Below are positions 6,837 to 48,363 of a stretch of 64,000 nucleotides of DNA, piece by piece (within the stretch, counting starts at the first letter, position 1; each line of letters opens with the position of its first letter). The position numbers and the translations under genes are program-made. The notes below the pieces were generated by a model. It worked only from the letters and a program-made list of their open reading frames with translations, was not told the origin of the DNA and searched no databases. The DNA comes from Photobacterium sp. DA100 (lineage in GTDB: Bacteria > Pseudomonadota > Gammaproteobacteria > Enterobacterales > Vibrionaceae): positions 1,302,001-1,366,000 of the forward strand of contig NZ_CP119423.1 in assembly GCF_029223585.1 (NCBI RefSeq), read 5' to 3'.

Positions 6837-6872
6837 GGCTGCCATACCAACGGGGATAACCCTGAAGGTAAC

Positions 6873-6946
6873 GGCGCGTTGGCAGAGTGGCTATGCAGCG
6901 GATTGCAAATCCGTGGACCTCGGTTCGACTCCGGGACGCGCCTCCA
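6873..6946 (+). tRNA. tRNA-Cys(GCA), copy 1
   Basis: The acceptor stem GGCGCGT/ACGCGCC, the anticodon loop with GCA in GATTGCAAATC, the T-arm GGTTCGACTCC and the encoded CCA end are all visible. It is the first gene of a Cys-Gly-Leu cluster and is identical to a second copy at 33930. Confidence 0.97.
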
Positions 6947-6949
6947 TTT

Positions 6950-7025
6950 GCGACACTAGCTCAGTTGGTAGAGCGCAACCTTGCCAAGGTTGAGGTCACG
7001 AGTTCGAACCTCGTGTGTCGCTCCA
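6950..7025 (+). tRNA. tRNA-Gly(GCC), copy 1
   Basis: The acceptor stem GCGACAC/GTGTCGC, anticodon GCC in CCTTGCCAAGG, T-arm GAGTTCGAACCTC and encoded CCA are visible. It lies 3 nt after tRNA-Cys and is identical to the copy at 34007. Confidence 0.97.
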
Positions 7026-22210: not shown

Positions 22211-22548
22211 TAGAGTTTCTCGGTAATTCTGATGCGGAGATCTTATCACTATCAGGGTAGGGCGTAGTAGAGATTTAGTTGCTAAAGGCGGTAATTCTGT
22301 GCCATTTCCAGATATTTACTAGGCTAACTTGAAACACGTTTTTGCCCCTTTCTGCGATAACAAACTGGTTTCTTCCTGTCACCTGATAACTGAGTAGCAA
22401 TATGTTCTCTAATGGCTCTCTGTGATGTTTTAACTCAGTGTAAATGAAAAGCTCTAATTGCTAGCACAAGCCGATAGTGTTCAAATACTTATTAAAAGAG
22501 AATGCGCCAAGCTCAGTGGGGGCTAAGCTAGGCGCACAAAGAGTGACG
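22211..22548. other. Intergenic region with a hairpin for the leftward OM-protein gene
   Basis: No gene is seen. At 22502-22536 an imperfect stem with TGCGCC/GGCGCA outer arms follows the outer-membrane protein gene on the reverse strand and ends in a modestly T-rich stretch; it may be that gene's terminator. Confidence 0.45.
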
Positions 22549-24222
22549 TTAGAAACGATAACCAAAATTTAACGTCATCGAATCTCGCGTTTCGCCTTTG
22601 TTATACATAAAGGTCAGATTGTAGTTTCTGTCAAATTGCTTATTAAACCCGACAACATAAGCCCATTTGTTCAAATCTACGCCTATGTCGTAATCGAACT
22701 CGATATCGCCGGCTTTAACGTGCCCATCCATGCGTGGTTCTAGGCCTTGGTATTCTGCCCCGACAAAGAGTTGTGCACGATAGTCAACCAACTGATAGCC
22801 AAGCATAGGTTGAATGGTGGCAATGGGTTCGCCCCAATCAGTGATTCCTTTCAGGCGTGTTTGTGAGACAGTGCCTGTCACCGATGCAAAAAACTCGCGA
22901 TACCCAACGGAGAGTGTGGTGCCGATACCACGTAAATCGTATTCGAGGTGCAAGGGGATCTCAACATTGCCTGTGTGACACAAGCGACCATAAGTTTCAC
23001 TATCACAGAACTTATCACCAAGTCCAGGGCGTCCGGGCAGGGCTGGTAATTGGTTAAGCTTATCACGGATGAACTCTCCCGCAGCGCCGGTGTACTCAGC
23101 ATCTACTTTAGCATCGACGTTAATTTTGCCGATGTAGCCAAACACATTCCAAAAAGGAAGAATGTTGATATCACCACGAATGTTTAGACTCTCGGCTTTG
23201 ACCGTCCCAATCGAACCCCCAGGATCAAACAGGTCATTCAGCCTGACACCATTGATGGTAAAGTCGTTAAAGGGAATGTTCATGTTTTGATTTCTATAGG
23301 CCACAGATACCCCATACGGTAGTGGCAGATCAATCCCTTTTCTTCGTACTATGTCTCCCATTAATGGAAAGGTGCGATCCAGTTTGACACTCACTTCACG
23401 AATGCGTGGGTCTGATACTTCGGTGAGTAGTGCTTGATGAATGATGTCCACGCCGCGCTCTTCACTATAAAGTGCTACAGGTTGAGCGACGGAACTGACA
23501 TGAACAGGTTGGCTCTTCTTAGTGCCGTTAATGTCGATCGCTTTTTTGCTTAGGGGCAGTTTGCCACTACCGAGCGTCGCGAAAGTTATGGTTTGGCGAT
23601 AGCTGGCGACACGGACACCATCATAATCAAAGGGTTTGGCATTGGTAATGGTCATCAGCTGAGGCACGCCATCTTTTACAGTGATATTGACACGCATGAA
23701 GCGAAAGTACGCGATGTCTTGCGGCAAACCATATTTAGAATAATTGAAGCTCACTACACTTGTGCCATCGGGCAAGTCTGTAGCTGTAACGCTGGTTGGG
23801 TCGTAGCTTTGTGCGTAGTCACGCAATCGATATTCTGTGCGAGTGTTGCGCTCAATTTCGCTGATCGCATCATCTTGCTCATCCAGTTCATTGGGGTTGT
23901 ACTTGATACGTAAATCAATATTGCCTTTTTCATCGGTATTTTTGACCAGAAAAACACGAGATTTGCGCACTTGGTCGCCGATAGTGATTTGGCGCTCAAC
24001 ATGTTCAACTAAGTGCTCTCCAGCAGTTAGGGAGCTTAAACCCAATCGCGGCAAATCGTCGCTGATGCCATAGCGATTAAATACCTCTTGACCATGAGCC
24101 ATGATTTCTGTAAGGGATTGAGTGTCAGTGATCTGTTGTTGTTCCGTACCTAGGCTGCCAAAGCTGATGAGTGAGCTGATAAGTGCAGTCAGTAAAATCG
24201 GTTTGTTTGCTAGTTTACGCAT
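22549..24222 (-). CDS. Outer-membrane beta-barrel protein of unknown function, 557 aa
   Basis: An exported protein: MRKLANKPILLTALISSLIS is a signal peptide. The first ~300 residues form a soluble region with LVEHVERQITIGDQ, then a C-terminal part of alternating amphipathic strands (YDLRGIGTTLSVGYREFFAS, MLGYQLVDYRAQLFVGAEYQ) ending in NFGYRF; a terminal aromatic Phe is the signal for BAM-dependent outer-membrane insertion. Two Cys (CDSETYGRLC) may form a disulphide. Start at 24222 was chosen because 21 upstream residues lack export features. A copy of the 23-bp palindrome found throughout this region (24385-24407) lies 163-185 bp upstream. I do not recognise the family. The next gene to its right is another outer-membrane protein. 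Confidence 0.75.
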   Translation of the reverse strand: MRKLANKPILLTALISSLISFGSLGTEQQQITDTQSLTEIMAHGQEVFNRYGISDDLPRLGLSSLTAGEHLVEHVERQITIGDQVRKSRVFLVKNTDEKGNIDLRIKYNPNELDEQDDAISEIERNTRTEYRLRDYAQSYDPTSVTATDLPDGTSVVSFNYSKYGLPQDIAYFRFMRVNITVKDGVPQLMTITNAKPFDYDGVRVASYRQTITFATLGSGKLPLSKKAIDINGTKKSQPVHVSSVAQPVALYSEERGVDIIHQALLTEVSDPRIREVSVKLDRTFPLMGDIVRRKGIDLPLPYGVSVAYRNQNMNIPFNDFTINGVRLNDLFDPGGSIGTVKAESLNIRGDINILPFWNVFGYIGKINVDAKVDAEYTGAAGEFIRDKLNQLPALPGRPGLGDKFCDSETYGRLCHTGNVEIPLHLEYDLRGIGTTLSVGYREFFASVTGTVSQTRLKGITDWGEPIATIQPMLGYQLVDYRAQLFVGAEYQGLEPRMDGHVKAGDIEFDYDIGVDLNKWAYVVGFNKQFDRNYNLTFMYNKGETRDSMTLNFGYRF

Positions 24223-24384
24223 AGTCGTTTTGCTCCAAATCCATCGTTTTTCACCCCTAAGAAAATGCGATGGTTTGCTAATCACAGAACCGCCTTGTTC
24301 TATGTGGTTGTGTTTGCAGCCCTTTTTTTACTCAGTGGGCTTGGCAATGATTTTATCGTCGAACACTGCGCGCCAATAATCGGG

Positions 24385-24407
24385 TTTGGAGGATGAGATC
24401 CTCCCGT
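24385..24407. promoter_or_regulatory. Palindrome copy 1 (weakest), upstream of OM-protein gene
   Basis: TTTGGAGG, ATGAGAT, CCTCCCGT: shares the GGRT...TCCT core of the palindrome family at 25343, 28070, 28187 and 31844, with degenerate outer arms. It lies 163-185 bp upstream of the 557-residue OM-protein start. Confidence 0.4.
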
Positions 24408-24445
24408 ATAGGCGCCAGCGAAATGGACCTCACCTATTGGCCTAA

Positions 24446-24474
24446 CAAAAAAAGCCTGCGTTTTCACGCAGGCT
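24446..24474 (-). terminator. Terminator of the 252-aa OM-protein gene
   Basis: On the reverse strand AGCCTGCG and CGCAGGCT with a 6-nt loop are followed by seven T residues. Confidence 0.9.
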
Positions 24475-24509
24475 GATTTAAGGACAGTAGGACAGATTAA
24501 ATGAGAGAC

Positions 24510-25268
24510 TTATAGGTACACTTTGTAGTTAAACCATACGCGATTCTCATTGATGTCGACGGATTTACTGCTCGACTCCATGCTGCCAGAGGTGTTTTCA
24601 AACTTAACTTGGCCCCAACGTGTTTTATCCGCGCTCAGTGGTGTCGCTGCCATCAAGGTGGTTTTTACTGTGGTTGAGTCGATGTCACCGCTCAAGTAAG
24701 TCAACTCAGGGTATAACGCTAAGAAAGTTCCATCTTGGCCGGTTTTCCAGACCGCGTATGCCGCGCCCATTCCGCCAACCAGGCTATCGTCAGTCACGTT
24801 AAACGCATTCATTGATTGGTCCGAATAAGTACCGGTCAGTGCGCCGACACGCGCAAAAAAGGTTAATGAGTCAATTGGGGTACGGAAAATTGAAATGGCA
24901 CCCAGTGCGGCCGTGGTTGCTGTATCATTGTCGATGACATCAAGCGAAACCGCGACACGGGGAGATATTGAGTTTCCAGTATTGAACACGTGGAAGTACT
25001 GGAAGCGGCTATCGCTATAATCGCCTTCGTTGTTCATCGTCCCTTCTACCGAGAACATCGACTCCATACCATTTTCGTATTGGTAGGAGATAGAGGCAGA
25101 GGCTTTAACATCCCCATCGTTGCTGGCACCGACATAAAAGGTTGAGTAGGCACGAGTCATATCTGACGCGTCAAGGGCTTCGCTGTTTGCATTGTCTGCA
25201 GCGTGAGCGCCTGCAACAAGAGTGCTACCGATAAGAGTGGTTAAAAGTGCTTTTTGGAAATGGTTCAT
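24510..25268 (-). CDS. Outer-membrane barrel protein, 252 aa
   Basis: Residues 1-23 (MNHFQKALLTTLIGSTLVAG, cleaved after AHA) form a signal peptide. The mature protein is rich in alternating polar/hydrophobic strands with Gly and aromatic residues (YSTFYVGASNDGDVKASASI, VGGMGAAYAVWKTGQDGTFL, LYPELTYLSGDIDSTTVKTT) and ends NRVWFNYKVYL, consistent with a small beta-barrel of 8 to 12 strands. I cannot name the family; it resembles small outer-membrane channels in style only. A strong copy of the regional palindrome (25343-25365) lies 75-97 bp before the ATG, a position usual for activation by a LysR-type regulator. Its own terminator separates it from the next gene. Confidence 0.78.
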   Translation of the reverse strand: MNHFQKALLTTLIGSTLVAGAHAADNANSEALDASDMTRAYSTFYVGASNDGDVKASASISYQYENGMESMFSVEGTMNNEGDYSDSRFQYFHVFNTGNSISPRVAVSLDVIDNDTATTAALGAISIFRTPIDSLTFFARVGALTGTYSDQSMNAFNVTDDSLVGGMGAAYAVWKTGQDGTFLALYPELTYLSGDIDSTTVKTTLMAATPLSADKTRWGQVKFENTSGSMESSSKSVDINENRVWFNYKVYL

Positions 25269-25342
25269 AGTAAGTTTTCCACAAGTTGTATTGATAGGAA
25301 TGTGGAGATTTTATGAGGGAATTTGAAAGCGAGTTAATCGCA

Positions 25343-25365
25343 TATGATGGATCTAATCCTACAAT
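25343..25365. promoter_or_regulatory. Palindrome copy 2, upstream of 252-aa OM-protein gene
   Basis: TATGATGG, ATCTAAT, CCTACAAT: matches the regional consensus (TAYGTAGG, 7-nt centre, CCTACRTA) closely on the right arm. It is 75-97 bp upstream of the start codon at 25268. Confidence 0.6.
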
Positions 25366-25446
25366 GTGGGCTAAAAAAGCGTTTTTATGATGAGAGTTTC
25401 GTTGCTTTTTGCTTTGAGTAACGAACAAAAGCAGAGTGTTTAATGA

Positions 25447-25480
25447 AACAAAAACAGCCTCGGCGAAAACTAAGGCTGTT
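25447..25480 (-). terminator. Terminator of the efflux operon
   Basis: On the reverse strand AACAGCCT and AGGCTGTT arms, followed by TTTTTG, lie about 50 bp after the FUSC stop codon. Confidence 0.75.
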
Positions 25481-25528
25481 GAATTGACGACTTTTGACGT
25501 TCTGTGAGGTAGCGGAAACGGTAAATGA

Positions 25529-26911
25529 TTATTTATTGAACGCGATTTTCGCCTCACAGGGCGTAAGAAGATCCGAAAAAAGTTTGGCAATCGCTAAGAT
25601 GATCAACACATAGACCAACATCATCAGCGGCATTTCAATATTGTAATAAGGAGTGAGGTTTAACGCGCTTGAAGAGAGCACCAACAACAAGTTAACCCCA
25701 AGGACTCGAAAGATCCCCAATCGTGCGTTATCGAACACCTTCCAAATGGCGACAATATTAATGAAGTAAAAAGTGAGCAACTGCCACAGCTCAGTGAATG
25801 ATGGCATGATCAGCGAATACTGTAATAAGTAGAACCCACCCAAGCCAACGGCGCCAAAGAACGCATCTCTTATTGCGCTGGTGGGTAAGGGAGGAAGATT
25901 GGTGGCAAAAATGCCGGCAATCATCGGGAACACGAAGCCGCCAGGTATCGGTAAATAGATCCAAGCGAATATACAGGCGAGAAACGTGCTGGTACCTTGT
26001 ACCACCTTTTTCCAATCGTCACCAATATGCTGTTTCAGGCTGCGTTGCCTTAACGAAGGCTTGTGTTTAGAGTAACGTCGGGCCATTTCAAGTAGATCAG
26101 AGGGTAGAAGAGGCTCAATGGGAGGCATTTCCCACGTCGATTCTAAGTTACGCTCGATGTCTGCGAGATAGTTCGACAAATCACTGGGCTTATGGCTGAG
26201 GCTCTCAAGTATATGCACAATTACATCTATTTCTCGAAGTCTTTCCAACCATTTCGGCTGATAATACTGCAAGTCATAGCTGCCATGATTGGGGAGTTCG
26301 AGTAAGTGATGAAGTTGACTCGCACTGCGCTGAATACCTTCTATTGCCTCGTTATTCAGCCGGCCATGATGATAGTGGTTGAGCGCTTGCTGTAACTCGG
26401 TATGCAACTCCCAATAGCGATGACAAAACACAGTCTCAGTGCTAACAGGCCAAATCAGTCGGTATATTAAGGTAAATACGCCAATACCAAGTAAGGTTTC
26501 TTGTAACCGCAGGATGATGTACTCAAAGGTGTTTAGGCTGTCGAAGCCTCCCATACAACAGATGATGGTGCATACGGTATACCCTTGAACAAAGATATAG
26601 CCGCGCCTTTCATCGCTCGCCATAAACAAGCTGGCGGCGAGCAGCAAGGTATAGAAAACGACAAATAAAAAATGGTCTTGGGAGAAACAGGTGATTAAAA
26701 ATAGCGCGTAACCGGCGCCCATCAAAGCGCCAAGCACTCTATTTTGCCCTTTTTGCAACGAGTGCGCGAACGTTTCGTTCAATGCGAGAACAGCGGCGGT
26801 AATACCGGCCCAGTAGGGTTTATCCCACTCAAACCAGATAGCAAGGCAGAGGGCGCTAACGATCGCCAACGCCGCTTTAATCGCTTCTTTTGTAGAGTGA
26901 TTGAGCATCAT
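25529..26911 (-). CDS. FUSC-family efflux permease (AaeB/fusaric-acid resistance type)
   Basis: A 460-residue inner-membrane protein with two membrane blocks of about five or six helices each (residues ~10-150 and ~315-450) on either side of a soluble central region, the FUSC/AaeB layout. Visible parts: WFEWDKPYWAGITAAVLALN, IVGVF-type helices, FAWIYLPIPGGFVFPMIAGI. Members export aromatic carboxylic acids such as p-hydroxybenzoate or fusaric acid with an HlyD-like adaptor. It is about 200 residues shorter than E. coli AaeB. It is the last gene of an operon after a DUF1656 protein and the adaptor, the standard order for this pump class. AAGG a few nt upstream supports an ATG at 26911 or 26908. 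Confidence 0.87.
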   Translation of the reverse strand: MMLNHSTKEAIKAALAIVSALCLAIWFEWDKPYWAGITAAVLALNETFAHSLQKGQNRVLGALMGAGYALFLITCFSQDHFLFVVFYTLLLAASLFMASDERRGYIFVQGYTVCTIICCMGGFDSLNTFEYIILRLQETLLGIGVFTLIYRLIWPVSTETVFCHRYWELHTELQQALNHYHHGRLNNEAIEGIQRSASQLHHLLELPNHGSYDLQYYQPKWLERLREIDVIVHILESLSHKPSDLSNYLADIERNLESTWEMPPIEPLLPSDLLEMARRYSKHKPSLRQRSLKQHIGDDWKKVVQGTSTFLACIFAWIYLPIPGGFVFPMIAGIFATNLPPLPTSAIRDAFFGAVGLGGFYLLQYSLIMPSFTELWQLLTFYFINIVAIWKVFDNARLGIFRVLGVNLLLVLSSSALNLTPYYNIEMPLMMLVYVLIILAIAKLFSDLLTPCEAKIAFNK

Positions 26912-26917
26912 GATACC

Positions 26918-27781
26918 TTATTGCTTGATGATTTTTATCGATGCTGTCATTCCAACGCGCAATTGCACATTGTTTGGTCTCTGTTTTAACGTTACTTTGA
27001 CCGGAATGCGTTGAGCGAGTCGAATCCACTGAAAATTGGGATTCACCGTTGGCAGTAGCTCATTTCCCGTTATGCCATCTTGCTTGGCAATGCCGTAGCC
27101 GATGCTCGTCACTTCAGCTTCTAAAGGTTGGGCTGGGTCGATCAACAAGGTCACAAAAGCTTTGTCGTTGGGATCCACGCCCTCTAGGTCGGTTTCTTTG
27201 AAATAGCCCTCTACCCAGAAACTGTTGGCATCAATCAGTGCAACAACAGGGCTGTTGGCCACAACCTGAGATCCCACCCGCAGATGAAAGTTGGTAATAA
27301 AACCATCGGTTGATGCGTAGACTTTGGTGTAATCGAGGTTGAGCTTAGCCTCTTCAACCATGGCTTTGGTTAGGCTTAGGTTGGCCCTGGCCGAGTCAAC
27401 CGCGTTGCTCAAGTTATTGAGTGTCAGCGTCGCAACAGATCCCGGCGTGCGGCTTTGCAGCGCGAGTGCGCGATTTTCTTCATTGAGCGCTTTGTCGAGG
27501 GCGGCTTGGGCTTGCTCTTGAGAAGCGATGGCTTTGTGATACGCCGCTTGATACAAGCTGTCGTCGATTTCAAACAGCAGATCGCCTTTAGTGACTTGGC
27601 TGTTGTCTGATATATGAACGGCGGTCACTTGGCCGGTAACACGAGGCGTAATCGAGACGATATACGCACTGACGCGGCCATCACGTGTCCACGGATTTTG
27701 CGTGAACACCGAATAAAAGTTGGCGATCACTGCTCCAGCACTGAGTACCAGAATCAGGGTAATCAAATAACGCTTAATCAT
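26918..27781 (-). CDS. Periplasmic adaptor (HlyD/AaeA family) of the efflux pump
   Basis: This 287-residue membrane-fusion protein links the FUSC permease to an outer-membrane channel. An N-terminal membrane anchor (MIKRYLITLILVLSAGAVIA) is followed by the lipoyl half NPWTRDGRVSAYIVSITPRV plus VTGQVTAVHISDNSQVTKGD, a short helical hairpin (~80-150), the second lipoyl half (LDYTKVYASTDGFITNFHLR) and a beta-barrel domain. NPWTRDGRV is typical of EmrA/AaeA-type adaptors. The ATG at 27781 has GGGGGAG about 4 nt upstream; a TTG six codons earlier is less likely. It starts 10 bp after the DUF1656 gene and ends 6 bp before the permease. Confidence 0.9.
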   Translation of the reverse strand: MIKRYLITLILVLSAGAVIANFYSVFTQNPWTRDGRVSAYIVSITPRVTGQVTAVHISDNSQVTKGDLLFEIDDSLYQAAYHKAIASQEQAQAALDKALNEENRALALQSRTPGSVATLTLNNLSNAVDSARANLSLTKAMVEEAKLNLDYTKVYASTDGFITNFHLRVGSQVVANSPVVALIDANSFWVEGYFKETDLEGVDPNDKAFVTLLIDPAQPLEAEVTSIGYGIAKQDGITGNELLPTVNPNFQWIRLAQRIPVKVTLKQRPNNVQLRVGMTASIKIIKQ

Positions 27782-27791
27782 CTTCTCCCCC

Positions 27792-28004
27792 TTAAACAAT
27801 CGAAATGACTTGGCTGAAAATGCCGGTAAAGATCACAAAGAGACTGATCTCAGCCAGTGTCGGGTGAACAATGTATCGATATAGACCGGTTTTGACTGAA
27901 ATTGTCGTGGCGAGCAGGGTAAACCCATAAGCAAGGGCCGCAACCAATAGAAGTGGAGTGAAATAGACATCACCCCATACGATCTCATGAGGTATAGCGT
28001 GCAT
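27792..28004 (-). CDS. DUF1656 small membrane protein (AaeX-like)
   Basis: A 70-residue protein with two membrane helices (VYFTPLLLVAALAYGFTLLA and LAEISLFVIFTGIFSQVISI), beginning MHAIPHEIVWGDV. Such proteins head aaeXAB-type aromatic acid efflux operons; their role is unknown. I set the start at the ATG at 28004 because family members open with a short E-I-x-x-G-D-V motif before the first helix; a frame reaching 28091 adds 29 polar residues. It is the first gene of the leftward pump operon, below two copies of the regional palindrome. Confidence 0.85.
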   Translation of the reverse strand: MHAIPHEIVWGDVYFTPLLLVAALAYGFTLLATTISVKTGLYRYIVHPTLAEISLFVIFTGIFSQVISIV

Positions 28005-28069
28005 AAGTGTTCTCTGTTTAGCGTCTTTGCCTAGAGAGTAACTGTGGTTGTTCTTATTAAACACTCGCG

Positions 28070-28092
28070 TATGTAGGGTCGTATCCTTCAAC
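28070..28092. promoter_or_regulatory. Palindrome copy 3, promoter-proximal at the efflux operon
   Basis: TATGTAGG, GTCGTAT, CCTTCAAC: left arm perfect, right arm degenerate. It sits 66-88 bp before the DUF1656 start, the place of the degenerate promoter-proximal site in LysR-type regulation, with the perfect copy ~100 bp further upstream. Confidence 0.6.
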
Positions 28093-28186
28093 CCAGAAGA
28101 GATTTCTTTACTTCGGTGTAATGCGTGAATAGACAGATCAGAAGTGCGCCTTAATAAGTAATACAGCCTATTTGATTGATGATTTG

Positions 28187-28209
28187 GATATGTAGGGTCT
28201 GGTCCTACA
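28187..28209. promoter_or_regulatory. Palindrome copy 4, between efflux operon and serine hydrolase
   Basis: ATATGTAGG (28188-28196) and CCTACATAT (28204-28212) are perfect 9-bp arms around the 7-nt centre GTCTGGT. It is 183-205 bp upstream of the DUF1656 gene and about 120 bp upstream of the divergent serine-hydrolase gene, so it could serve either. Confidence 0.65.
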
Positions 28210-28332
28210 TATGCGATTGGTTTGCGGCAAAAAAAACGTCAATACTGAGCCCATCAACACGATACAGACGAACTCGTATTTAAGGTTCACCTTAGGCAAC
28301 ACTATTAGATTTAATTATAGAGAGATACCCAG

Positions 28333-29619
28333 ATGAAAAAATTAATCGCTTTATCAATTGCAGCAGTTATCACTTCGGGCGCGGCAATGGCCAACGTGAT
28401 AGTTAATGAGACAACAACGAACAAAGTCGTTGCAGAGACACACGAATTTTTCCTTGAAAAAGGAAATCGCGTGAAGCTTCAATTCCCAATCGCAGAATCA
28501 CATTTTGCTTGGCAAAACATTAGCCGTTTTTATAACACGGCGCAGATCGAACGCGACGGCGCAGTTTATCAGTTCCCGTACTCTATCGATGCGAACATTG
28601 GGAATATTAAAGCAACCGTTCAAGGCGAAGAACGTACCCTTAACGAACATTTAGATGATTTCCCGGTTGACGCTTTCCTTGTTGTAAAAAACGGCGAGAT
28701 TGTTTTCGAGCGCTACAACACAATGCGCAAGACAGATAAACACAATTGGTTTTCAAACTCGAAAATTACTACAGGTATAGAACTAGCGAAGCTAGTCGAA
28801 GAAGGCAAAGTTAAGGAACAAGATCCAGTTTCAAAATACATTCCGGAGCTTAAAGGTTCAGCTTGGGATACAGTGAAAGTGATCGACGTTGCAAATATGG
28901 CTACAGGTTTGAACGCAACAGAGCACGACGAACCAAATCCAGATTCACGTACGAACCCAGAACAGCCGTTTTTTAAATGGTTAGTTTCTATCGGGGTATT
29001 TGACGGCGATTCAACACAAAAGCCGCTTGATGTACTGAGCGAAATGACACGCCGCCAAGAGGCGGGCAAAACATTCGAGTACAACTCGATTAACACGTTT
29101 GTTCTTGCTCGAATTATTGAGAATGTACGCGGCTTGCCAATGAACGAAATTATCAGCCGTGATCTATGGCAGAAAATGGGTGCAAACAACGATGCTTATA
29201 CGGTTGTTTCTCCGGTCGGCGGTTATCCATTAATGTTCTTCTCTATGAACTCAACAATCGAAGATATGGCTAAATTCGGTATGTTGTTAACCCCATCAGG
29301 GGCGAAACTTGGTGACGGTGCGGTTTCTGAAAAAGTCGTTCAACGCATTCAAGCGTCCGGCCATCCAGAAGCGTTCGAGGGCGGTTACGTCGGTAAAGTT
29401 ATGGCGAATTCATTCTATAACGACACGAACTTCAAGAACGGTTACATGTTCGATACGATCTTTGAAGACGGCGATTTATACAAGGGTGGTGTAGGTGGTC
29501 AGGGTATTTACATTTCGCCGGACAAAGATCTCGTTGTTACGTTCTTCTCTACAAGTACGGGCAAGAACCAAGAAGAAACCTATGCCCGAGAAATCGCAAA
29601 ATACTTCGCGAACAAGTAA
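28333..29619 (+). CDS. Exported beta-lactamase-fold serine hydrolase (6-aminohexanoate-dimer hydrolase type)
   Basis: A 428-residue periplasmic or secreted protein: MKKLIALSIAAVITSGAAMA is a signal peptide. The penicillin-binding/class C beta-lactamase fold spans about 110-425. The catalytic S-x-x-K is Ser141-Asn-Ser-Lys144 in WFSNSKITTG; the second motif is Y250-N-S (family norm YxN or YxS); the third is the GGVGGQGIYISP region. Such proteins hydrolyse esters, amides or D-peptides; the substrate is not readable. GKVKEQDPVSKYIPELKGSA and NMATGLN match the esterase/oligomer-hydrolase branch better than true beta-lactamases. It diverges from the efflux operon, with a perfect palindrome 121-146 bp before its start. 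A terminator follows at 29667. Confidence 0.85.
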   Translation: MKKLIALSIAAVITSGAAMANVIVNETTTNKVVAETHEFFLEKGNRVKLQFPIAESHFAWQNISRFYNTAQIERDGAVYQFPYSIDANIGNIKATVQGEERTLNEHLDDFPVDAFLVVKNGEIVFERYNTMRKTDKHNWFSNSKITTGIELAKLVEEGKVKEQDPVSKYIPELKGSAWDTVKVIDVANMATGLNATEHDEPNPDSRTNPEQPFFKWLVSIGVFDGDSTQKPLDVLSEMTRRQEAGKTFEYNSINTFVLARIIENVRGLPMNEIISRDLWQKMGANNDAYTVVSPVGGYPLMFFSMNSTIEDMAKFGMLLTPSGAKLGDGAVSEKVVQRIQASGHPEAFEGGYVGKVMANSFYNDTNFKNGYMFDTIFEDGDLYKGGVGGQGIYISPDKDLVVTFFSTSTGKNQEETYAREIAKYFANK

Positions 29620-29666
29620 AACAGTTTTTACTTGGTTTGTAGGTATTTAACTAAAGGAATTGTATT

Positions 29667-29692
29667 AGCCCCGACTCAAGTCGGGGCTTTTG
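29667..29692 (+). terminator. Terminator after the serine hydrolase gene
   Basis: AGCCCCGAC and GTCGGGGCT with a 4-nt loop are followed by TTTTG. Confidence 0.85.
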
Positions 29693-29704
29693 TCGAGGAG
29701 AATA

Positions 29705-29818
29705 TGCTCAAGAAAGGAAGCGCTAGAGGTATACACGATTAAGGCATTGCCTGATGGTAATCAAGCCATTGAAATCGGCGATACGATTAAAGCGTCTAAC
29801 ATCGTGACCTATCAGTAG
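29705..29818 (+). pseudogene. Possible 3' remnant of an unidentified gene
   Basis: An open stretch ending in TAG reads ...KEALEVYTIKALPDGNQ, AIEIGDTIKASNIVTYQ, which is protein-like in composition, but it has no start codon with a ribosome site and begins just after a terminator. It may be the tail of a deleted gene. No family is recognised. Confidence 0.3.
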
Positions 29819-29970
29819 CATTTAGTATCGTGTTGAATGGAGCATGGCTCCCTTGTTGCTGTTCGGTATTCAGCCAATAAGCTTTTTGACTTCCGTCCTC
29901 ACACAAATATTCCGTACCATGTTCGCAGTCGACTATGGCAAGACTGGTCATCACTAAGGTAACTCACATT

Positions 29971-30822
29971 ATGAAAAGCGTTATTTCCATCCAACCTCAT
30001 TTGGTTTGTGGTCAGGCAGGCAATAGCTCAACGGTTTTCCCTGTTCAGCGCATGGGCGTTGAAGCTTGGGCAATTAACAGCTTGCAGTGTTCAGACAGTT
30101 CCGCGAACCCAGTGAGTTTCAGCTATCCGGCGGAAAACGTTTGTCATCTAGTACAAGCTCTAGATCGAAACGAGCGGCTTAATCAATGCAACGCGATCAT
30201 CTCTGGGTATCAGAGCTCACTGGCGCACAATCAAGCGGTGTATGAGGCGGTTAAGCTGGTGAAGTCACGCAGTGTCGGCGCGTTATATGTTTGTCACCCA
30301 TTGTTTGGTCGTACTAGTGAAGCGCGCCAAACTCACCCAAAGGCATGCCGCTATATTGTTGACCAATTAATGCCGATCGCGGATGTTCTGGTATGTCAGA
30401 CAGAGGAGTTGCAGTTGTTCACTGAACTCCCCATTGATAATGAAGAAAACGCCGTACGTGCTTGTCAGCGGGCTTTGGAGAAAGGCCCGAAAATTGTGTT
30501 AGTTAGCCACGTGCCGTGCCTTGCTGATGGGAGCGTCTCGATGATGTTGGCGACGCCGAAAAACGTCTATTCAGTGCAAAGACCTTGGATTGAATTTGCC
30601 AAGGCTCCGGTCGGCGTCGACGACCTTCTCACTGCTGTTTATACGGCCTGTTTAGTCAATCACATGTCACCAGTCGCGGCGCTGCGTCATACCAATAACG
30701 CGCTTTATGGTGTGCTAGAGACAACGCTCAATAGTGATAGCGATGAGCTACAAACCATTAGCGCGCAATATGAGTTTGTTGAACCTACCCACGACTTTGC
30801 GGTACAGAAATACTCTATTTGA
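29971..30822 (+). CDS. Pyridoxal kinase-like protein (PdxY/ribokinase family)
   Basis: A 283-residue protein related to PdxY, which phosphorylates pyridoxal with ATP. The N-terminus SVISIQPHLVCGQAGNSSTV with FPVQRMGVEAWAINSLQCS corresponds to [20 protein letters not shown]-like PdxY starts; later VCHPLFGRTSEA, QTEELQLFTELP and VLVSHVP match family landmarks. The anion-hole/catalytic motif, normally GTGD, reads Gly-Val-Asp-Asp (APVGVDDLLTA): the catalytic Asp remains but the second Gly is replaced. Activity may be reduced or altered. ATG at 29971 is preferred, since PdxY-like sequence starts there; an in-frame ATG at 29935 adds 12 residues. It precedes the LysR gene by 106 bp, so a PLP-related signal is conceivable. 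Confidence 0.8.
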   Translation: MKSVISIQPHLVCGQAGNSSTVFPVQRMGVEAWAINSLQCSDSSANPVSFSYPAENVCHLVQALDRNERLNQCNAIISGYQSSLAHNQAVYEAVKLVKSRSVGALYVCHPLFGRTSEARQTHPKACRYIVDQLMPIADVLVCQTEELQLFTELPIDNEENAVRACQRALEKGPKIVLVSHVPCLADGSVSMMLATPKNVYSVQRPWIEFAKAPVGVDDLLTAVYTACLVNHMSPVAALRHTNNALYGVLETTLNSDSDELQTISAQYEFVEPTHDFAVQKYSI

Positions 30823-30928
30823 TATCCTGCTCAAGAGATACGAGTTATAGGTGGTTGATTGCGCTGGTTATCATGGCAAAAAAAGTGCTATCTTGTGATT
30901 ATTCATCCCCAACCAACCCCTTACTGCT

Positions 30929-31831
30929 ATGAACTTTAGTCTTGAACAGCTATTGGCATTTGTCACCGTCTATGAGCACCTTTCATTTAGTAAGGCTGCG
31001 GTAAAACTTAATAAGCATCGAACCACCATAGGTCAAGTTATCACTAACCTTGAAGACCAACTCGCGGTCACGTTATTTGAACGAGTTGGTCGCTCAGTTG
31101 AACCTACCGAAGACGGCCATCTTCTTTATCACTATGCTAAGCAAGCGATCGAGCAAGCCCGCGTATTTGACAAAATTGCCCTCAGCCTTTCTTATGGCGG
31201 TCTTGAACGCGTGGTGATTGCCTATCCAAGTTTTGTTCCTCATCAAGCTCTATTTCTGATTCGCCAACAATTAGTCCAAGATTTTCCGACCATGCGCGTA
31301 GAGTTTCTTGTGCGTGATCGCGACGAAATAAAGCAAGGCATCGTTGATGGCAGCATTCATTTTGGCTTGGTGAACATTCATGAAAGTACCGCAATTCATA
31401 GTTTTGACTCGACCTTTTTAGGCCACGTAGAGTTTTTGCCTTACGTACAAGCTGGAGGCCGATTGGCGCAAATGGATAAAGCTACAGTAGTGGGTGAGCT
31501 GCAAACGGAACGGCAGTTTATGCTCAAGTCTCTGGTTGATGAGGGCTTGGCCGATAAGTTCGTATTTTCAGCCAACAATGAGCAAGTCGACCAACTGGCC
31601 TTGGTGATTAAAATGATCAAAGAAGGGCTTGGTTGGGCGTGGTTGCCTAAAGCGTTGTCTGAGTCTCAATTTGCGGTCGAAGGGGTGTCGCCACTTGAAC
31701 TCGATTTGATGTTAGAAGGAATGAAACTGCCAATCTCCTTGTGGTGCCCACACGCCAAAAACATCAAAGAGGTGAGGGGGTCAATCATTAAAGCGATTAG
31801 TGATCATGTGCAGAAATACAAAGAGCGCTAG
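30929..31831 (+). CDS. LysR-type transcriptional regulator (likely regulator of the local palindrome set)
   Basis: A 300-residue DNA-binding regulator with the LysR winged helix-turn-helix at 1-60 (MNFSLEQLLAFVTVYEHLSF, FSKAAVKLNKHRTTIGQVI, LEDQLAVTLFERVGRSVEPT) and a periplasmic-binding-like effector domain from about 90 (VVIAYPSFVPHQALFLIRQQ). It lies among four units preceded by copies of one 23-bp inverted repeat with a T-N11-A core, so it is the obvious candidate to bind them. A perfect copy begins 13 bp after its own stop codon. Its own upstream region has no copy, so autoregulation is not indicated. The inducer is unknown; the pump suggests an aromatic acid. Confidence 0.92.
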   Translation: MNFSLEQLLAFVTVYEHLSFSKAAVKLNKHRTTIGQVITNLEDQLAVTLFERVGRSVEPTEDGHLLYHYAKQAIEQARVFDKIALSLSYGGLERVVIAYPSFVPHQALFLIRQQLVQDFPTMRVEFLVRDRDEIKQGIVDGSIHFGLVNIHESTAIHSFDSTFLGHVEFLPYVQAGGRLAQMDKATVVGELQTERQFMLKSLVDEGLADKFVFSANNEQVDQLALVIKMIKEGLGWAWLPKALSESQFAVEGVSPLELDLMLEGMKLPISLWCPHAKNIKEVRGSIIKAISDHVQKYKER

Positions 31832-31840
31832 TCTCAGTGA

Positions 31841-31869
31841 GCTTACGTAGGATCAAGTCCTACGTAAGC
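31841..31869. promoter_or_regulatory. Palindrome copy 5 (strongest), upstream of the surface-antigen remnant
   Basis: GCTTACGTAGG (31841-31851) and CCTACGTAAGC (31859-31869) are perfect 11-bp arms around the centre ATCAAGT. It lies 13 bp past the LysR stop codon and 85-113 bp before the ATG of the next gene, the same spacing as at the OM-protein and efflux genes. It has no T run, so a terminator role alone is unlikely. Confidence 0.7.
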
Positions 31870-31953
31870 GATTCTTAATCTCTCATTAGCTTGGTTATAG
31901 TCATCTCATTCAAGGCCTAGAGCCACCGGCATTGAGCTCCTGCTCACTGTGAG

Positions 31954-32755
31954 ATGACTATGATGAACAAAACTTGTCCCCTGATGTTGGTTTGTGCCAG
32001 TACCTTCTTCGCTTCATACACCAGCGCCTCGTTTTTTGACAGCCATGATGGGCAGTTTGATCTTGGGTATCATCTTGCTGAGAACGCTTACCGCTTTTTG
32101 CCTGTGCCCATTTTAATCACCGAGCCGGGCGTTGGAGAAGCGAAGCTGGATATTTACCAACCCATAAAGTTTGATGGTATAGGTGCACTGCCTGCTATCG
32201 ATACCATCAGGTTTGGTACCACGACTCAAGTCGCGGGTTTGATGCAAAAACTTCAATTTCGAGTCAAGACACGTCACTGATGTTAGGAGCCAAACAAGTG
32301 CTCGCAGTGTCCAGCGTCGATTTGAACTTTTACGGAAAACTAGGACAAGCGATAGATAAAATTAGTCAACATTTGAACCTTGGAGAGTTAGACCGCACAT
32401 CGGTCACGTCAGGGTTAGGGCTGGTGGTTGACTACGATACTCGCGACAACTTGTTTTATCCGACTCAAGGGTATCAACTCAGCGCTGAGTACATGGTGTA
32501 CGATGAGGCGCTCGGCAGTGATTACAACTATTACAGCCTGTCGCTCAGCGGGCAGGTCTATATTCCACTCAGTCCCTCTTGGAACCTGGCGTTTGGTGGT
32601 AACTATCAGAACTTTTCCAGCGACGATGCTTTGATAACGCCCACCGCTAAACCCTATGTCAGTTTGCGTGCCGTTGTGGTTTAAGGTTAGGTATCGATCT
32701 TGCGTTTAGTGACCAAGAAAATGCACTTTACTTTAATATTGGGTGCGGACTTTAA
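31954..32755 (+). pseudogene. Broken outer-membrane surface-antigen (D15/BamA-like barrel) gene
   Basis: The pieces together resemble a ~380-residue surface-antigen protein of the D15 family but no single frame is intact. Piece 1 (31954-~32210) has a signal peptide (MTMMNKTCPLMLVCASTFFA) and mature N-terminus. Near 32200-32230 the reading shifts by one frame: the protein continues RGFDAKTSISSQDTSLMLGA, then SSVDLNFYGKLGQAIDK and VVDYDTRDNLFYPTQGYQLS, ending at a TAA (32684) after PYVSLRA. The last barrel strand (GIDLAFSDQENALYFNIGCG, stop at 32753-32755) is in another frame and the strands between are missing. So at least one frameshift and one internal deletion are present. The perfect palindrome upstream implies it was once part of the same regulon. 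Confidence 0.7.
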
Positions 32756-32823
32756 CTGTGCTAAATACAGGGAGCATAACGCACCTTACGCGGATTTACT
32801 TGTGTTTATCACTGTGGGCAGCG

Positions 32824-33929: not shown

Positions 33930-34003
33930 GGCGCGTTGGCAGAGTGGCTATGCAGCGGATTGCAAATCCGTGGACCTCGGTTCGACTCCGGGACGCGCCT
34001 CCA
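33930..34003 (+). tRNA. tRNA-Cys(GCA), copy 2
   Basis: Identical over all 74 nt, CCA included, to the gene at 6873. Confidence 0.97.
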
Positions 34004-34006
34004 TTT

Positions 34007-34082
34007 GCGACACTAGCTCAGTTGGTAGAGCGCAACCTTGCCAAGGTTGAGGTCACGAGTTCGAACCTCGTGTGTCGCTCCA
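34007..34082 (+). tRNA. tRNA-Gly(GCC), copy 2
   Basis: Identical over all 76 nt to the gene at 6950, with the same 3-nt TTT spacer after tRNA-Cys. No tRNA-Leu follows this copy. Confidence 0.97.
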
Positions 34083-46308: not shown

Positions 46309-48363
46309 ATGAAAAATTATTCCCGCTCAATAATTGCAACAGGCATCGCGTTGGCCTTGGTTGCTTGTAATAATGATTCATCAACATCTGGTAAAGATAA
46401 TCTTGCGCCATCTAATGTGGCCGTTAAGGTCGGGGATGCACAGGTAAAAGGTTTATTGGAAAAAATAAAGATTACGAATCTTGATAACCAAGCCGAAACG
46501 GTTGATGTTGAGGTGTATAAAGGCATTCGCTATGCAACAGCAAATCGATTCCAGCACAGTAAATTGGTTGAGCCTACAGAGCAGGTAGATGCTACAGCGT
46601 TTGGCGATATCTGTCCTCAGTTGGGCAATGAAGCGATTGCCCAGTCGGAAGATTGCTTAAGCTTGAATATCTGGCGTCCGACTGGGATCCCGGCCGGAAA
46701 AGAGCTTCCAGTCTATGTCTTCATCCATGGTGGCTCATTTGAAAGTGGTGCCGGGTCGTCGGCATTGAATCAGGCGGATACCATTGTAGCCCAAAGCATT
46801 TCAGATACCGCCTTGGGTGAGCGTGAAGCGCCATTCATTGCGGTGTCGTTGAACTACCGTGTTGGCTTGTTAGGCAGCAAGTGGGTTGACGCAGAGGTGA
46901 ACCCTTACGGCGGCAACTACGGCATCGGCGATCAGAAGCGGGCGCTTGAGTGGGTCAACAAATATATCGCTCATTTTGGTGGCGACAGCAGCAATGTCAC
47001 GGTGTTTGGCGAGAGTGCCGGTGCGATGTCGATTGGTATTTTGCAGCAGGATCAGGATGTTGCCGGTCCGTATTACCAGCGCGCCATTATGCAAAGCAAC
47101 CCGTACGGTATTGCCTATAAAGATTATGGTTCGGCACAGCGCCTGCAAAATCAACTGGAACAACACGCACAGGACCAATTTGGCAAATCGCTGGCCGAAC
47201 TGAGCTTGGCCGAGTTAAAGGAGGTTCAAGCCTATGCCAAACAGCCGACGCAGTTGGTGACCGGCCTTGTGACATCTTTCCCGGCGACATCTGGCTTCTT
47301 GCCATTTGCGCCATACATCGAAAGCAGGGAGAAGAGCCTTATCGGTGGTGGTAAGATCGACGGCTATCACATTGTCGGTCAGCCAATCCATACTGAATTT
47401 CACGTTCCTACCGTGGTTGGCTTTAACAGCGATGAAGCCAATATCTTTACCGCAATGCTTGATTGGATGTTCTTGTATAACATCACCACAGAGGATCCAG
47501 AGACCGGTGAACAAGTACCGGTTGTGATGCCAGATGTCTCGCAGACTGACACAACAAACATTAGTGCACCCAAAGAAGCGGTTATTTCGCTAATCAAAAA
47601 GTACTATTGGGCCGTCTGGGCAATTGATAAAGAGTTAGCTGCGCAGATGAAGGCAATTCAAAAAGAGCTGGAAGCTATACCGGATGAGGTGGTCACACGC
47701 CAAAACCTGTATCCGATCATTACCCGCCTGTTCCTTGGGCTTCAAAACCAAACAGCCAATAAAGCACTTGAATTCATTGACTATGCCGCGTTTGATGACA
47801 AGACGTTAACGGGCAAGGGTGAGGAAGGCGAGAAAGGTGCACTGGGCAATATTGGCCAGATCCGTAAACTGGCCAATGATCTGTTGTTTACCTGTGCCGC
47901 CCGCGAGGTGGTCGACAGGCAATCAACGAACCATGCGACGACCTTGTACCATTACGACTATACCTCCAGTATCAATATCTGGCCATTTGGTCATGGCATG
48001 ATGGGGAATTTGGCCGCATTGAGTTGCAGCAATAGCAACGGTACCGGCAAGGCCTGCCATGCTTCGGAGTTGCCTTTTGTCTTTAACAAGGCGGTGAATA
48101 TTGCCGGCGAGACGATCTACCCGAACCAGCAAGATCGCCAACTGATGAGCACCATGTCCCGCATTTGGTTTACGGATAAGTTGTTTGAGGGCTATCCGCG
48201 TAACAGTGCGGACAATGTACTGATGATTAATGCCGACGGTCAGTTTGTCGAGCAATTGGATTGGGGCAACACTTTGAATGCACCACAGGATGCCCGGTTG
48301 GGAAGCAGTATCTGTGAGGGTATTTCAGAGCAAGGTATTCTGTTTGATTACATGCCAAAATAA
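46309..48363 (+). CDS. Lipoprotein carboxylesterase (type B, alpha/beta hydrolase)
   Basis: A 684-residue lipid-anchored esterase, likely at the cell surface or periplasm. The N-terminus MKNYSRSIIATGIALALVAC has a lipobox with Cys20 followed by Asn-Asn-Asp. The type B carboxylesterase fold has EDCLSLNIWRP, the oxyanion loop FIHGGSFESGAG, and the nucleophile Ser in FGESAGAMS (about residue 233); the catalytic Glu and His lie further on (FNSDEANIF; FGHGMMGNL is a His candidate). It hydrolyses esters of unknown chain length. It sits between two fadL genes with FadR-like sites, so release of fatty acids for FadL uptake is probable, as for the Vibrio VolA/FadL pair, though VolA is a different lipase class. 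Confidence 0.88.
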   Translation: MKNYSRSIIATGIALALVACNNDSSTSGKDNLAPSNVAVKVGDAQVKGLLEKIKITNLDNQAETVDVEVYKGIRYATANRFQHSKLVEPTEQVDATAFGDICPQLGNEAIAQSEDCLSLNIWRPTGIPAGKELPVYVFIHGGSFESGAGSSALNQADTIVAQSISDTALGEREAPFIAVSLNYRVGLLGSKWVDAEVNPYGGNYGIGDQKRALEWVNKYIAHFGGDSSNVTVFGESAGAMSIGILQQDQDVAGPYYQRAIMQSNPYGIAYKDYGSAQRLQNQLEQHAQDQFGKSLAELSLAELKEVQAYAKQPTQLVTGLVTSFPATSGFLPFAPYIESREKSLIGGGKIDGYHIVGQPIHTEFHVPTVVGFNSDEANIFTAMLDWMFLYNITTEDPETGEQVPVVMPDVSQTDTTNISAPKEAVISLIKKYYWAVWAIDKELAAQMKAIQKELEAIPDEVVTRQNLYPIITRLFLGLQNQTANKALEFIDYAAFDDKTLTGKGEEGEKGALGNIGQIRKLANDLLFTCAAREVVDRQSTNHATTLYHYDYTSSINIWPFGHGMMGNLAALSCSNSNGTGKACHASELPFVFNKAVNIAGETIYPNQQDRQLMSTMSRIWFTDKLFEGYPRNSADNVLMINADGQFVEQLDWGNTLNAPQDARLGSSICEGISEQGILFDYMPK

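What the first reader, a model, noticed from the sequence alone, without database searches (positions are those of the whole stretch)
24385..31869. Five copies of one 23-bp palindrome before an efflux operon, OM proteins and a broken surface antigen: a LysR-centred envelope regulon
The pattern TAYGTAGG, 7 nt, CCTACRTA (core GGRT-x-N3-TCCT, T-N11-A form) occurs at 24385, 25343, 28070, 28187 and 31844, and I see no other good copies in the window. Each sits 66-205 bp upstream of a start codon, on the correct side: the 557-aa OM barrel, the 252-aa OM barrel, the DUF1656/HlyD/FUSC operon (one good and one degraded copy, as for many LysR promoters), and the surface-antigen remnant. The perfect 28187 copy also faces the serine hydrolase. 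A LysR gene (30929) lies in the middle. LysR proteins bind such repeats by established knowledge; that this protein binds them, and that the set forms one efflux/outer-membrane response, is inference.
Basis: partly seen in the sequence, partly recalled or inferred. Interest (0 to 1): 0.82.

Follow-up and report, generated by a model that had tools for sequence, protein, structure and literature searches.

The report
LysR activator's operator-promoter regulon on island
Five similar DNA signals beside a LysR-family regulator gene look like five ready-made, directional promoters of one small regulon that probably entered this genome as a single 10.5-kb block, and the same signal accompanies the same regulator in many marine bacteria.

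Summary
Only two copies are perfect 23-mers; they are the only exact ones in the 6.0-Mb genome. But a 32-column model built from LysR-orthologue loci of other genomes ranks the same five sites first in the window (28.8-37.5; best unrelated place 3.9). Each site is asymmetric: palindrome, then GCGATT, then a -10 hexamer 22 nt later, pointing at one gene. So 28070 is the efflux operon's promoter and 28189 the serine hydrolase's. In 74 loci fetched by LysR alone the model gives 207 hits (183 places) against 0-6 for 20 permuted models; 6 lie inside long ORFs. Among 394 genomes of the order, motif and orthologue co-occur (23 of 27 with LysR, 19 of 367 without). A recognition-helix change goes with a changed flank base, in two lineages. 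Elsewhere targets include an aspartate-alanine antiporter, phospholipase, carboxylesterase and Omp85/TamA-like proteins. The set is one ~10.5-kb insertion missing from three relatives and 90% identical to a Vibrio. Best reading: activator-dependent promoters of a LysR regulon answering organic-acid or envelope stress. Regulon firm; signal inferred. New member of a known kind.

The parts
22351..32806 (.). Insertion (~10.5 kb) that holds the whole regulon
   Evidence: Relative G041 matches at 96.4% up to 22350 and 98.6% from 32807, with 12.7 kb without DNA match between; in G068 and G007 the matches up to about 21640 and from about 32825 lie 70-122 bp apart. 90.3% DNA identity to Vibrio sp. 10N.261.55.A7 over 22341-28268.
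24378..24409 (-). Operator (palindrome + CCGATT flank) of the 557-aa protein; -10 TAAAAT at 24350-24355
   Evidence: Rank 3 in the window with the model from other loci (31.6); TAAAAT exactly 22 nt after the flank.
22549..24222 (-). 557-aa protein, secreted or outer-membrane by eye (ORF open from GTG 24285)
   Evidence: no Pfam match; homologues in 20 of 74 LysR loci, 18 of 20 with an upstream site.
25336..25367 (-). Operator (palindrome + GCGATT) of the 252-aa protein; -10 TAAAAT at 25308-25313
   Evidence: Rank 1 in the window (37.5); fixed -10.
24510..25268 (-). 252-aa putative outer-membrane protein (by eye)
   Evidence: Homologues in 17 of 74 loci, 13 of 17 with an upstream site; no Pfam match.
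28063..28094 (-). Operator (palindrome + GCGAGT) of the efflux operon; -10 TACTCT at 28035-28040
   Evidence: Rank 5 in the window (28.8); -10 at 22 nt.
27792..28004 (-). DUF1656 protein (AaeX-like), first gene of the efflux operon (ORF open to 28091)
   Evidence: PF07869, E 2.6e-15; 22 of 22 homologues found in the loci have a site.
26918..27799 (-). HlyD/AaeA-like periplasmic adaptor
   Evidence: PF16576, PF13437; AaeA model 189 bits, below its cut-off of 400.
25529..26911 (-). FUSC-family (AaeB-like) transporter
   Evidence: PF04632, E 6.1e-27.
28187..28218 (+). Operator (perfect palindrome + GCGATT) of the serine hydrolase; -10-like AATACT at 28241-28246
   Evidence: Rank 2 in the window (37.2); the one of five whose hexamer is not TANNNT.
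28333..29619 (+). Serine hydrolase, beta-lactamase-fold esterase family; N-terminus looks like a signal peptide by eye
   Evidence: PF00144, E 8.7e-34; block 28269-30928 has no DNA match in the two closest Vibrio loci.
29935..30822 (+). Pyridoxal kinase (PdxY-like); no operator of its own here
   Evidence: TIGR00687 203.6 bits, cut-off 144.5; 9 of 22 homologues in relatives have a site.
30929..31831 (+). LysR-type regulator, presumed activator
   Evidence: PF00126 and PF03466; 74 loci with a relative.
31842..31873 (+). Operator (perfect palindrome + GCGATT) of the Omp85 remnant; -10 TATAGT at 31896-31901
   Evidence: Rank 4 in the window (29.5); fixed -10.
31960..32684 (+). Broken Omp85-family surface-antigen gene
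   Evidence: PF01103 in 32280-32684; homologues in 27 of 74 loci, 14 of 27 with an upstream site.

Best explanation
Each site is a complete activator-dependent promoter module read in one direction: a LysR regulatory site (palindrome, consensus tttTG-AGGaT-N3-ATCCTtCATA, centre near -53), a second element GCGATT at about -40 to -35 overlapping the place of a -35 box, and a -10 hexamer 22 nt further. The LysR protein (gene 30929-31831) most likely binds the palindrome and contacts GCGATT. With its ligand it recruits sigma-70 RNA polymerase to promoters lacking a good -35 box, switching on together the DUF1656-HlyD-FUSC pump, two putative outer-membrane proteins, a serine hydrolase and (formerly) an Omp85 protein. 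Shown by sequence: the sites, their direction, the fixed -10, the restriction to this locus, co-occurrence and covariation with this LysR, and the insertion. Inferred: binding, activation rather than repression, and the signal. My best guess for the signal is organic (lipophilic or aromatic) acid or acid stress at the envelope, because across genomes the regulon joins acid-type efflux, aspartate-alanine exchange, pyridoxal kinase, lipid and ester hydrolases and outer-membrane proteins (confidence in that part about 0.4).
For: Five sites rank top five in 64 kb with a model from other loci. 207 hits (183 distinct places) in 74 LysR-selected loci against 0-6 for 20 permuted models; 6 of 207 inside ORFs of 200 aa or more although these cover 72% of bases. 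TANNNT exactly 22 nt after the flank in 139 of 173 flank-oriented sites, other offsets 10 or fewer. No hit of 16 or more in 27 non-orthologous LysR loci or 17 unrelated loci. Co-occurrence in 394 genomes: 23/27 with LysR, 19/367 without, p 6e-22. Recognition-helix HRTT/HRST against flank base: 47/48 G against 0/4, p 1.8e-5, in two separate branches of the LysR tree. Operon-internal control: FUSC 0 of 42 upstream sites against HlyD 39 of 45 and AspT 20 of 20.
Against: Nine of 74 loci have no hit of 16 or more, 28 of 74 have none within 500 bp of LysR, and 4 of 27 LysR genomes lack the exact motif. The HRST test was framed after seeing the list, the matrix that picks sites favours the G, and three of the four HRST proteins form one clade, so the p value overstates the evidence. 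The 28189 promoter has a poor -10 (AATACT). The window's own LysR promoter has no site, so autoregulation is not shown here. No binding or expression data. The stress assignment rests on gene content alone, and AspT, its strongest pillar, was not found among the window proteins scanned.
Confidence: 0.88

Rival explanations
1. The sites belong to a different regulator (for example another helix-turn-helix protein) that tends to be a neighbour of this LysR.
For: No binding data. The window copies do not have the textbook T-N11-A form. An AraC-type gene is a neighbour in one relative (L058:17244-18221).
Against: Loci were selected by LysR alone, and 65 of 74 hold hits, 46 of 74 within 500 bp of LysR. 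27 non-orthologous LysR loci have none. A change in the recognition helix goes with a change in the site.
Confidence: 0.07
2. Same regulon, but LysR acts mainly as a repressor, with the operator blocking RNA polymerase until a ligand releases it.
For: LysR proteins can repress; the GCGATT flank overlaps the -35 region.
Against: No consensus -35 box beside a strong fixed -10 is what activator-dependent promoters look like; the palindrome lies upstream of the core promoter, centred near -53.
Confidence: 0.1
3. Same regulon, different signal: the set answers lipid or acyl compounds (free fatty acids, acyl-amides) as substrates or toxins rather than acid.
For: Patatin, carboxylesterase, serine hydrolase, amidohydrolase and C45 acyltransferase targets and one fatty acid cis/trans isomerase locus.
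Against: AspT (20 of 20 homologues with a site) and pyridoxal kinase (9 of 22) fit acid or energy stress better.
Confidence: 0.35
4. The copies are a dispersed repeat family or conserved DNA without regulatory role.
For: Similar copies within 7.5 kb.
Against: Directional, upstream of unrelated gene families with a fixed -10, 6 of 207 hits in long ORFs, and no comparable site found in the rest of the genome.
Confidence: 0.01

Closest known systems
LysR-type activator promoters with a regulatory binding site and an activation binding site
   Same: LysR protein with HTH_1 and LysR_substrate domains; palindrome upstream and second element at the -35 position, in line with the two-site scheme (one passage each in PMC3723537, and PMC9068703; the exact positions are recalled, not from a call).
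   Different: Palindrome is A-N11-T in the window; the second element is a near-invariant hexamer adjoining the palindrome rather than a separate half-palindrome; more than 15 target gene families carry the same 60-bp module, several of them only once or twice.
AaeR - AaeXAB aromatic carboxylic acid efflux system
   Same: DUF1656-HlyD-FUSC operon next to a LysR gene.
   Different: LysR scores only 40.3 bits against the AaeR model (cut-off 425) and AaeA/AaeB homologues fall below their cut-offs; the regulon is much wider.
AceR (Acinetobacter LysR regulator of the chlorhexidine pump AceI)
   Same: Best NCBIfam match of the LysR protein; AceR is tied to regulation of an efflux pump gene (abstract start of PMC7382281 in the listing).
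   Different: 91.9 bits against a cut-off of 500; other transporter type.
Predicted LysR regulons in the Shewanella regulon collection (PMC3223726)
   Same: Local regulators with hypothetical efflux targets predicted by the same kind of comparative analysis (passages; section 8).
   Different: Nothing in the passages and section read names AspT, patatin or this operator; its Table 2 and supplements were not seen, so an entry for this regulon cannot be excluded.

Membership tests
LysR-type transcriptional regulator | N-terminal HTH_1 and C-terminal LysR_substrate domain | tested here: met
   PF00126 E 7e-17 and PF03466 E 5.8e-11
LysR-type activator regulon | Regulatory site with T-N11-A palindrome upstream of target promoters | tested here: inconclusive
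   Palindrome upstream of all five targets, but A-N11-T in the window; T-N11-A appears in copies with ATGGATNNNATCCAT (L055-L057)
LysR-type activator regulon | Second contact site near -35 | tested here: inconclusive
   GCGATT at a fixed place overlapping the -35 region; that the protein touches it is supported only by covariation
LysR-type activator regulon | Ligand-dependent activation by this protein | not testable with these tools
   needs protein and expression data
AaeR/AaeXAB system | Regulator and pump subunits meet the curated AaeR, AaeA and AaeB models | tested here: not met
   AaeR 40.3 of 425 bits, AaeA 189.3 of 400, AaeB 30.6 of 870
AceR | Meets the curated AceR model | tested here: not met
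   91.9 of 500 bits
Genomic island | Present here, absent at the same place in close relatives, related to another genus | tested here: met
   G041, G068 and G007 show no DNA match to 22351-32806 at this place (G068 has related genes elsewhere on the contig); the closest named LysR relatives are Vibrio at 95% and 92%, while other genomes of its genus that have one show 46-56%
Genomic island | Own integrase or conjugation genes | tested here: not met
   None among the nine proteins scanned between 22549 and 32684, two of which had no Pfam match; smaller ORFs were not scanned

The most novel reading that the evidence does not exclude
A travelling regulon: regulator, pump, outer-membrane and hydrolase genes move between marine genera as one block, and the 60-bp operator-promoter works as a socket into which different genes are plugged. 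The promoter at 28187-28246 lies at the end of a stretch 90% (L092) or 82% (L091) identical to Vibrio loci, while the gene behind it differs (serine hydrolase here, M20 peptidase there), and more than 15 gene families carry the same module elsewhere.
Probability: 0.35. Interest if true: 0.68.

Novelty: new member of a known kind. Interest (0 to 1): 0.52.

Why it matters
It turns an apparently uncharacterised LysR subfamily, spread over Vibrio, Aliivibrio, Photobacterium, Shewanella and relatives, into a regulon with a base-level promoter map, so that its targets, starts of transcription and operator code can be tested directly. It also gives a regulatory context to two putative outer-membrane protein families without a Pfam match and to an aromatic-acid-type pump, and a clear case of a regulon arriving whole in a genome.

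Tried and rejected
A short core (GTAGGRTYNNRTCCTAC, up to 2 mismatches) is not specific: all 52 genus genomes match, and in the window's genome less often than the reversed control (30 against 61; in some other genomes a little more often). The 23-mer with 1 mismatch finds nothing convincing in relatives (6 of 60 genomes), because other genomes use variants such as TGATGGATCNGATCCATCA; the oriented 32-column model does transfer. Three- and two-mismatch hits elsewhere in the genome are near background (19 against a control of 34 per strand; 20/19 against 15/9); two other places have one mismatch and score 15.5 and -0.1 with the model, and one two-mismatch place scores 19.2, all without a fitting -10. 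Rejected: dispersed repeat, chance, plasmid origin (no near match in plasmid records; one LysR relative at 58.6% on a Vibrio alfacsensis plasmid). The 19 genomes with an exact motif match but no LysR orthologue often share one sequence, GGATTAAATCCGACGAAAGCGATT or a near variant, perhaps inside a conserved gene; I kept them in the count and did not follow them. Literature searches for the regulon returned listings in which I saw no paper describing it; only titles and abstract starts were seen, and the library holds open-licence PMC papers only. In one search the best score of a column-permuted model in any locus was 26.4 (34 of 74 loci exceed that, 65 of 74 exceed the 95th percentile of 16.1), so a single high score is not proof on its own.
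Full report
CHECK OF THE OBSERVATION. The stated pattern is met exactly at 28189 and 31844, with three mismatches at 28070, and not within three mismatches at 24385 and 25343. In the 6.01-Mb genome (G000, window = C1:1302001-1366000) those two exact 23-mers are the only ones; 3-mismatch matches elsewhere do not exceed the reversed control. So the written pattern overstates three of the copies. With the pattern GGRTNNNRTCCNNCNNNNGCGATT the genome has three exact matches, all in this locus. At one mismatch there are 24385 and two other places; at two mismatches 28070 and 32 other places. Scored with the model described below, those two other one-mismatch places reach 15.5 and -0.1 and the best of the two-mismatch places tested 19.2, none with a fitting -10; the five window sites score 28.8 to 37.5. 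Thirty of the 39 matches were held as loci and scored, 9 were not.

THE LYSR NEIGHBOURHOOD ELSEWHERE. The LysR orthologue is uncommon: 5 of 52 genus genomes at E 1e-60 and 27 of 394 order genomes at E 1e-70, the window's own genome included in both. A search of named genomes with a seven-member LysR alignment gave 74 loci from Vibrio, Aliivibrio, Photobacterium, Shewanella, Psychromonas, Alginatibacterium, Neiella, Paraferrimonas and two metagenome-derived Vibrionaceae records. These were chosen by the regulator alone. Scanning them with the matrix of the five window sites gave 207 hits scoring 16 or more, in 183 distinct places (some palindromes are counted on both strands); twenty column-permuted matrices gave 0 to 6 hits. 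Six of 207 lie inside ORFs of 200 aa or more, which cover 72% of the bases; 189 of 207 have the start of an ORF of 60 aa or more within 400 bp downstream. Sixty-five of 74 loci have at least one hit; L109, L113, L133, L134, L140, L141, L144, L148 and L150 have none at that threshold. A model rebuilt from 166 of those sites, leaving out the two loci closest to the window, ranks the five window sites as the top five of the window; it finds nothing of 16 or more in 27 non-orthologous LysR loci (99,993 bases) or 17 unrelated loci (51,391 bases), against 217 in the 74 loci (1.46 Mb). The 166 sites had been found with the window's own matrix, so this is a check of transfer, not a fully independent discovery; simple word counts upstream of AspT homologues, made without the matrix, also bring up its half-site (ATCCATCA in 14 of 20).

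CO-OCCURRENCE. Among 394 genomes drawn from the order, 27 have the LysR orthologue and 42 have an exact GGRTNNNRTCCNNCNNNNGCGATT; 23 have both (23 of 27 against 19 of 367, Fisher p 6e-22; 5e-21 without the window's genome, typed from the listings). G165, G085, G144 and G308 have the regulator without an exact match. Relatedness among the genomes is not corrected for.

ANATOMY OF THE PROMOTER. Of 204 non-redundant hits, 173 carry at least four of six GCGATT bases on the strand read; of the 31 hits that do not, 20 are opposite-strand readings of another hit. The consensus of the 173 is tttTG.AGGaTt.gATCCTtCATA.GCGATTAa followed by TAtaAT. A TANNNT hexamer lies exactly 22 nt after the flank in 139 of 173; at other offsets the count is 10 or less. 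Taking that hexamer as -12 to -7, GCGATT lies at -40 to -35 and the palindrome centre near -53. No separate -35 box is seen. In the window the hexamers are TAAAAT (24385), TAAAAT (25343), TACTCT (28070), AATACT (28189) and TATAGT (31844): four of five fit TANNNT. This fixes the direction of each site: 28070 drives the DUF1656-HlyD-FUSC operon and 28189 the serine hydrolase, back to back.

LINK TO THE PROTEIN. Forty-six of 74 loci have a hit within 500 bp of the LysR gene. Four LysR proteins (L139, L144, L148, L157) carry HRST instead of HRTT in the HTH region (its role as recognition helix is family knowledge, recalled); the sites beside them lack the otherwise almost constant G of the GCGATT flank (0 of 4 against 47 of 48, p 1.8e-5; 52 of 74 loci entered this test, the others lacking a near site of 5 or more with a -10-like hexamer). 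Cautions: I framed the test after seeing the list, and the matrix that picks the sites prefers that G. In a quick tree L144, L148 and L157 form one clade (support 1.0) and L139 lies apart, so there are at least two branches with the pair of changes, not four. That the changed base lies in the flank suggests that the protein touches the flank too.

TARGETS. Grouping the ORFs behind the hits and scanning one representative per group (groups of short or single ORFs mostly not scanned) gives: HlyD of DUF1656-HlyD-FUSC operons (41 hits, 38 loci), the 557-aa protein (18 hits, 17 loci), AspT aspartate-alanine antiporter (18), patatin phospholipase (16), carboxylesterase (14), Omp85 (12), the 252-aa protein (7), a 144-aa unknown (7), a 315-aa group that lies at the LysR position (6; its low mean score of 16.7 suggests reverse readings), a pyridoxal-kinase-like group (4; its representative is below Pfam's cut-off), amidohydrolase (4), C45 acyltransferase (4), glycine-zipper (3), TamA-like (3), M20 peptidase (2), serine hydrolase (2), an aminotransferase-fold protein (2), a small beta-barrel (2), and in one locus each a fatty acid cis/trans isomerase, a second amidohydrolase and a pyridoxal-dependent decarboxylase. 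Counting homologues rather than hits (tblastn E 1e-15, at least 40% of the query; site of 12 or more within 450 bp upstream): AspT 20 of 20, carboxylesterase 18 of 18, DUF1656 22 of 22, HlyD 39 of 45, 557-aa 18 of 20, 252-aa 13 of 17, patatin 17 of 24, Omp85 14 of 27, pyridoxal kinase 9 of 22, amidohydrolase 9 of 16, 144-aa 7 of 13, aminotransferase-fold 2 of 15; the operon-internal FUSC gene 0 of 42. The name 'aspartate decarboxylase' for the aminotransferase-fold protein beside AspT would be my inference from its neighbour; Pfam says only Aminotran_1_2.

MECHANISM. The simplest reading is an activator: LysR on the palindrome plus GCGATT replacing the missing -35 contact. PMC3723537 (one passage) gives the family scheme of a regulatory site with T-N11-A and an activation site. 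Gene content suggests acid or organic-acid stress with envelope repair; lipid or acyl compounds are a serious alternative. Neither was tested.

ORIGIN. Flank comparison shows that 22351-32806 has no DNA match at this place in G041 (right flank 98.6% identical, left 96.4%; 12.7 kb without a match to the window there) nor in G068 and G007, where the flanking matches are 70 and about 120 bp apart. G068 has LysR and outer-membrane homologues elsewhere on the same contig. The contig lengths of G018 and G068 equal those of Photobacterium sanguinicancri and P. rosenbergii records, so the host is probably a Photobacterium; its regulon DNA is 90% identical to Vibrio sp. 10N.261.55.A7 (22341-28268) and 82% to V. 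sinaloensis AD048 (22546-28269). The block 28269-30928 (serine hydrolase, pyridoxal kinase) has no DNA match in them: the shared stretch runs through the 28187-28246 promoter and ends, and in both Vibrio loci another gene follows, an M20 peptidase by Pfam in L092 and its homologue in L091. No integrase was seen among the proteins scanned. The direction of transfer was not tested.

VERDICT. The finding is right in substance and now rests on strong comparative evidence. As a kind of thing it is a LysR regulon, so a new member of a known kind; its breadth, fixed promoter module, covariation and presence as one block make it more interesting than an ordinary annotation. Literature searches (listings only) showed no description, within an open-licence library.

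Noticed in passing
window 31960-32684: The Omp85-family gene behind the 31844 promoter is broken into pieces here, while its promoter looks intact; unbroken homologues of about 400 aa exist in relatives (e.g. L159).
   Followed up: partly
window 22351-32806; L231 5240-17953: The place between the genes ending near 21640 and beginning near 32825 is a variable spot: practically empty in G068 and G007, filled with 12.7 kb of other DNA in the close relative G041.
   Followed up: partly
window 33930-34082 and about 6842-7025: tRNA-Cys and tRNA-Gly genes just right of the insertion; the stretch around 6842-7025 matches the same region of relatives at about 94%.
   Followed up: no
window 46309-48363: A carboxylesterase of the Pfam family that is a regular target in relatives lies about 14 kb away, between two FadL-type genes, without an operator.
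   Followed up: partly
L159 LysR gene (Vibrio aestuarianus): The LysR gene has an in-frame stop in its HTH region although operators remain around it.
   Followed up: no
G096, G421, G250, G319, G348 and others: One 24-mer matching the operator pattern recurs, identical, in many genomes of the family with or without the LysR; perhaps part of a conserved gene.
   Followed up: no
NZ_AP024168.1 (Vibrio alfacsensis plasmid), 195120-196010: A 58.6% LysR relative sits on a 221-kb plasmid, so the regulator can be plasmid-borne.
   Followed up: no
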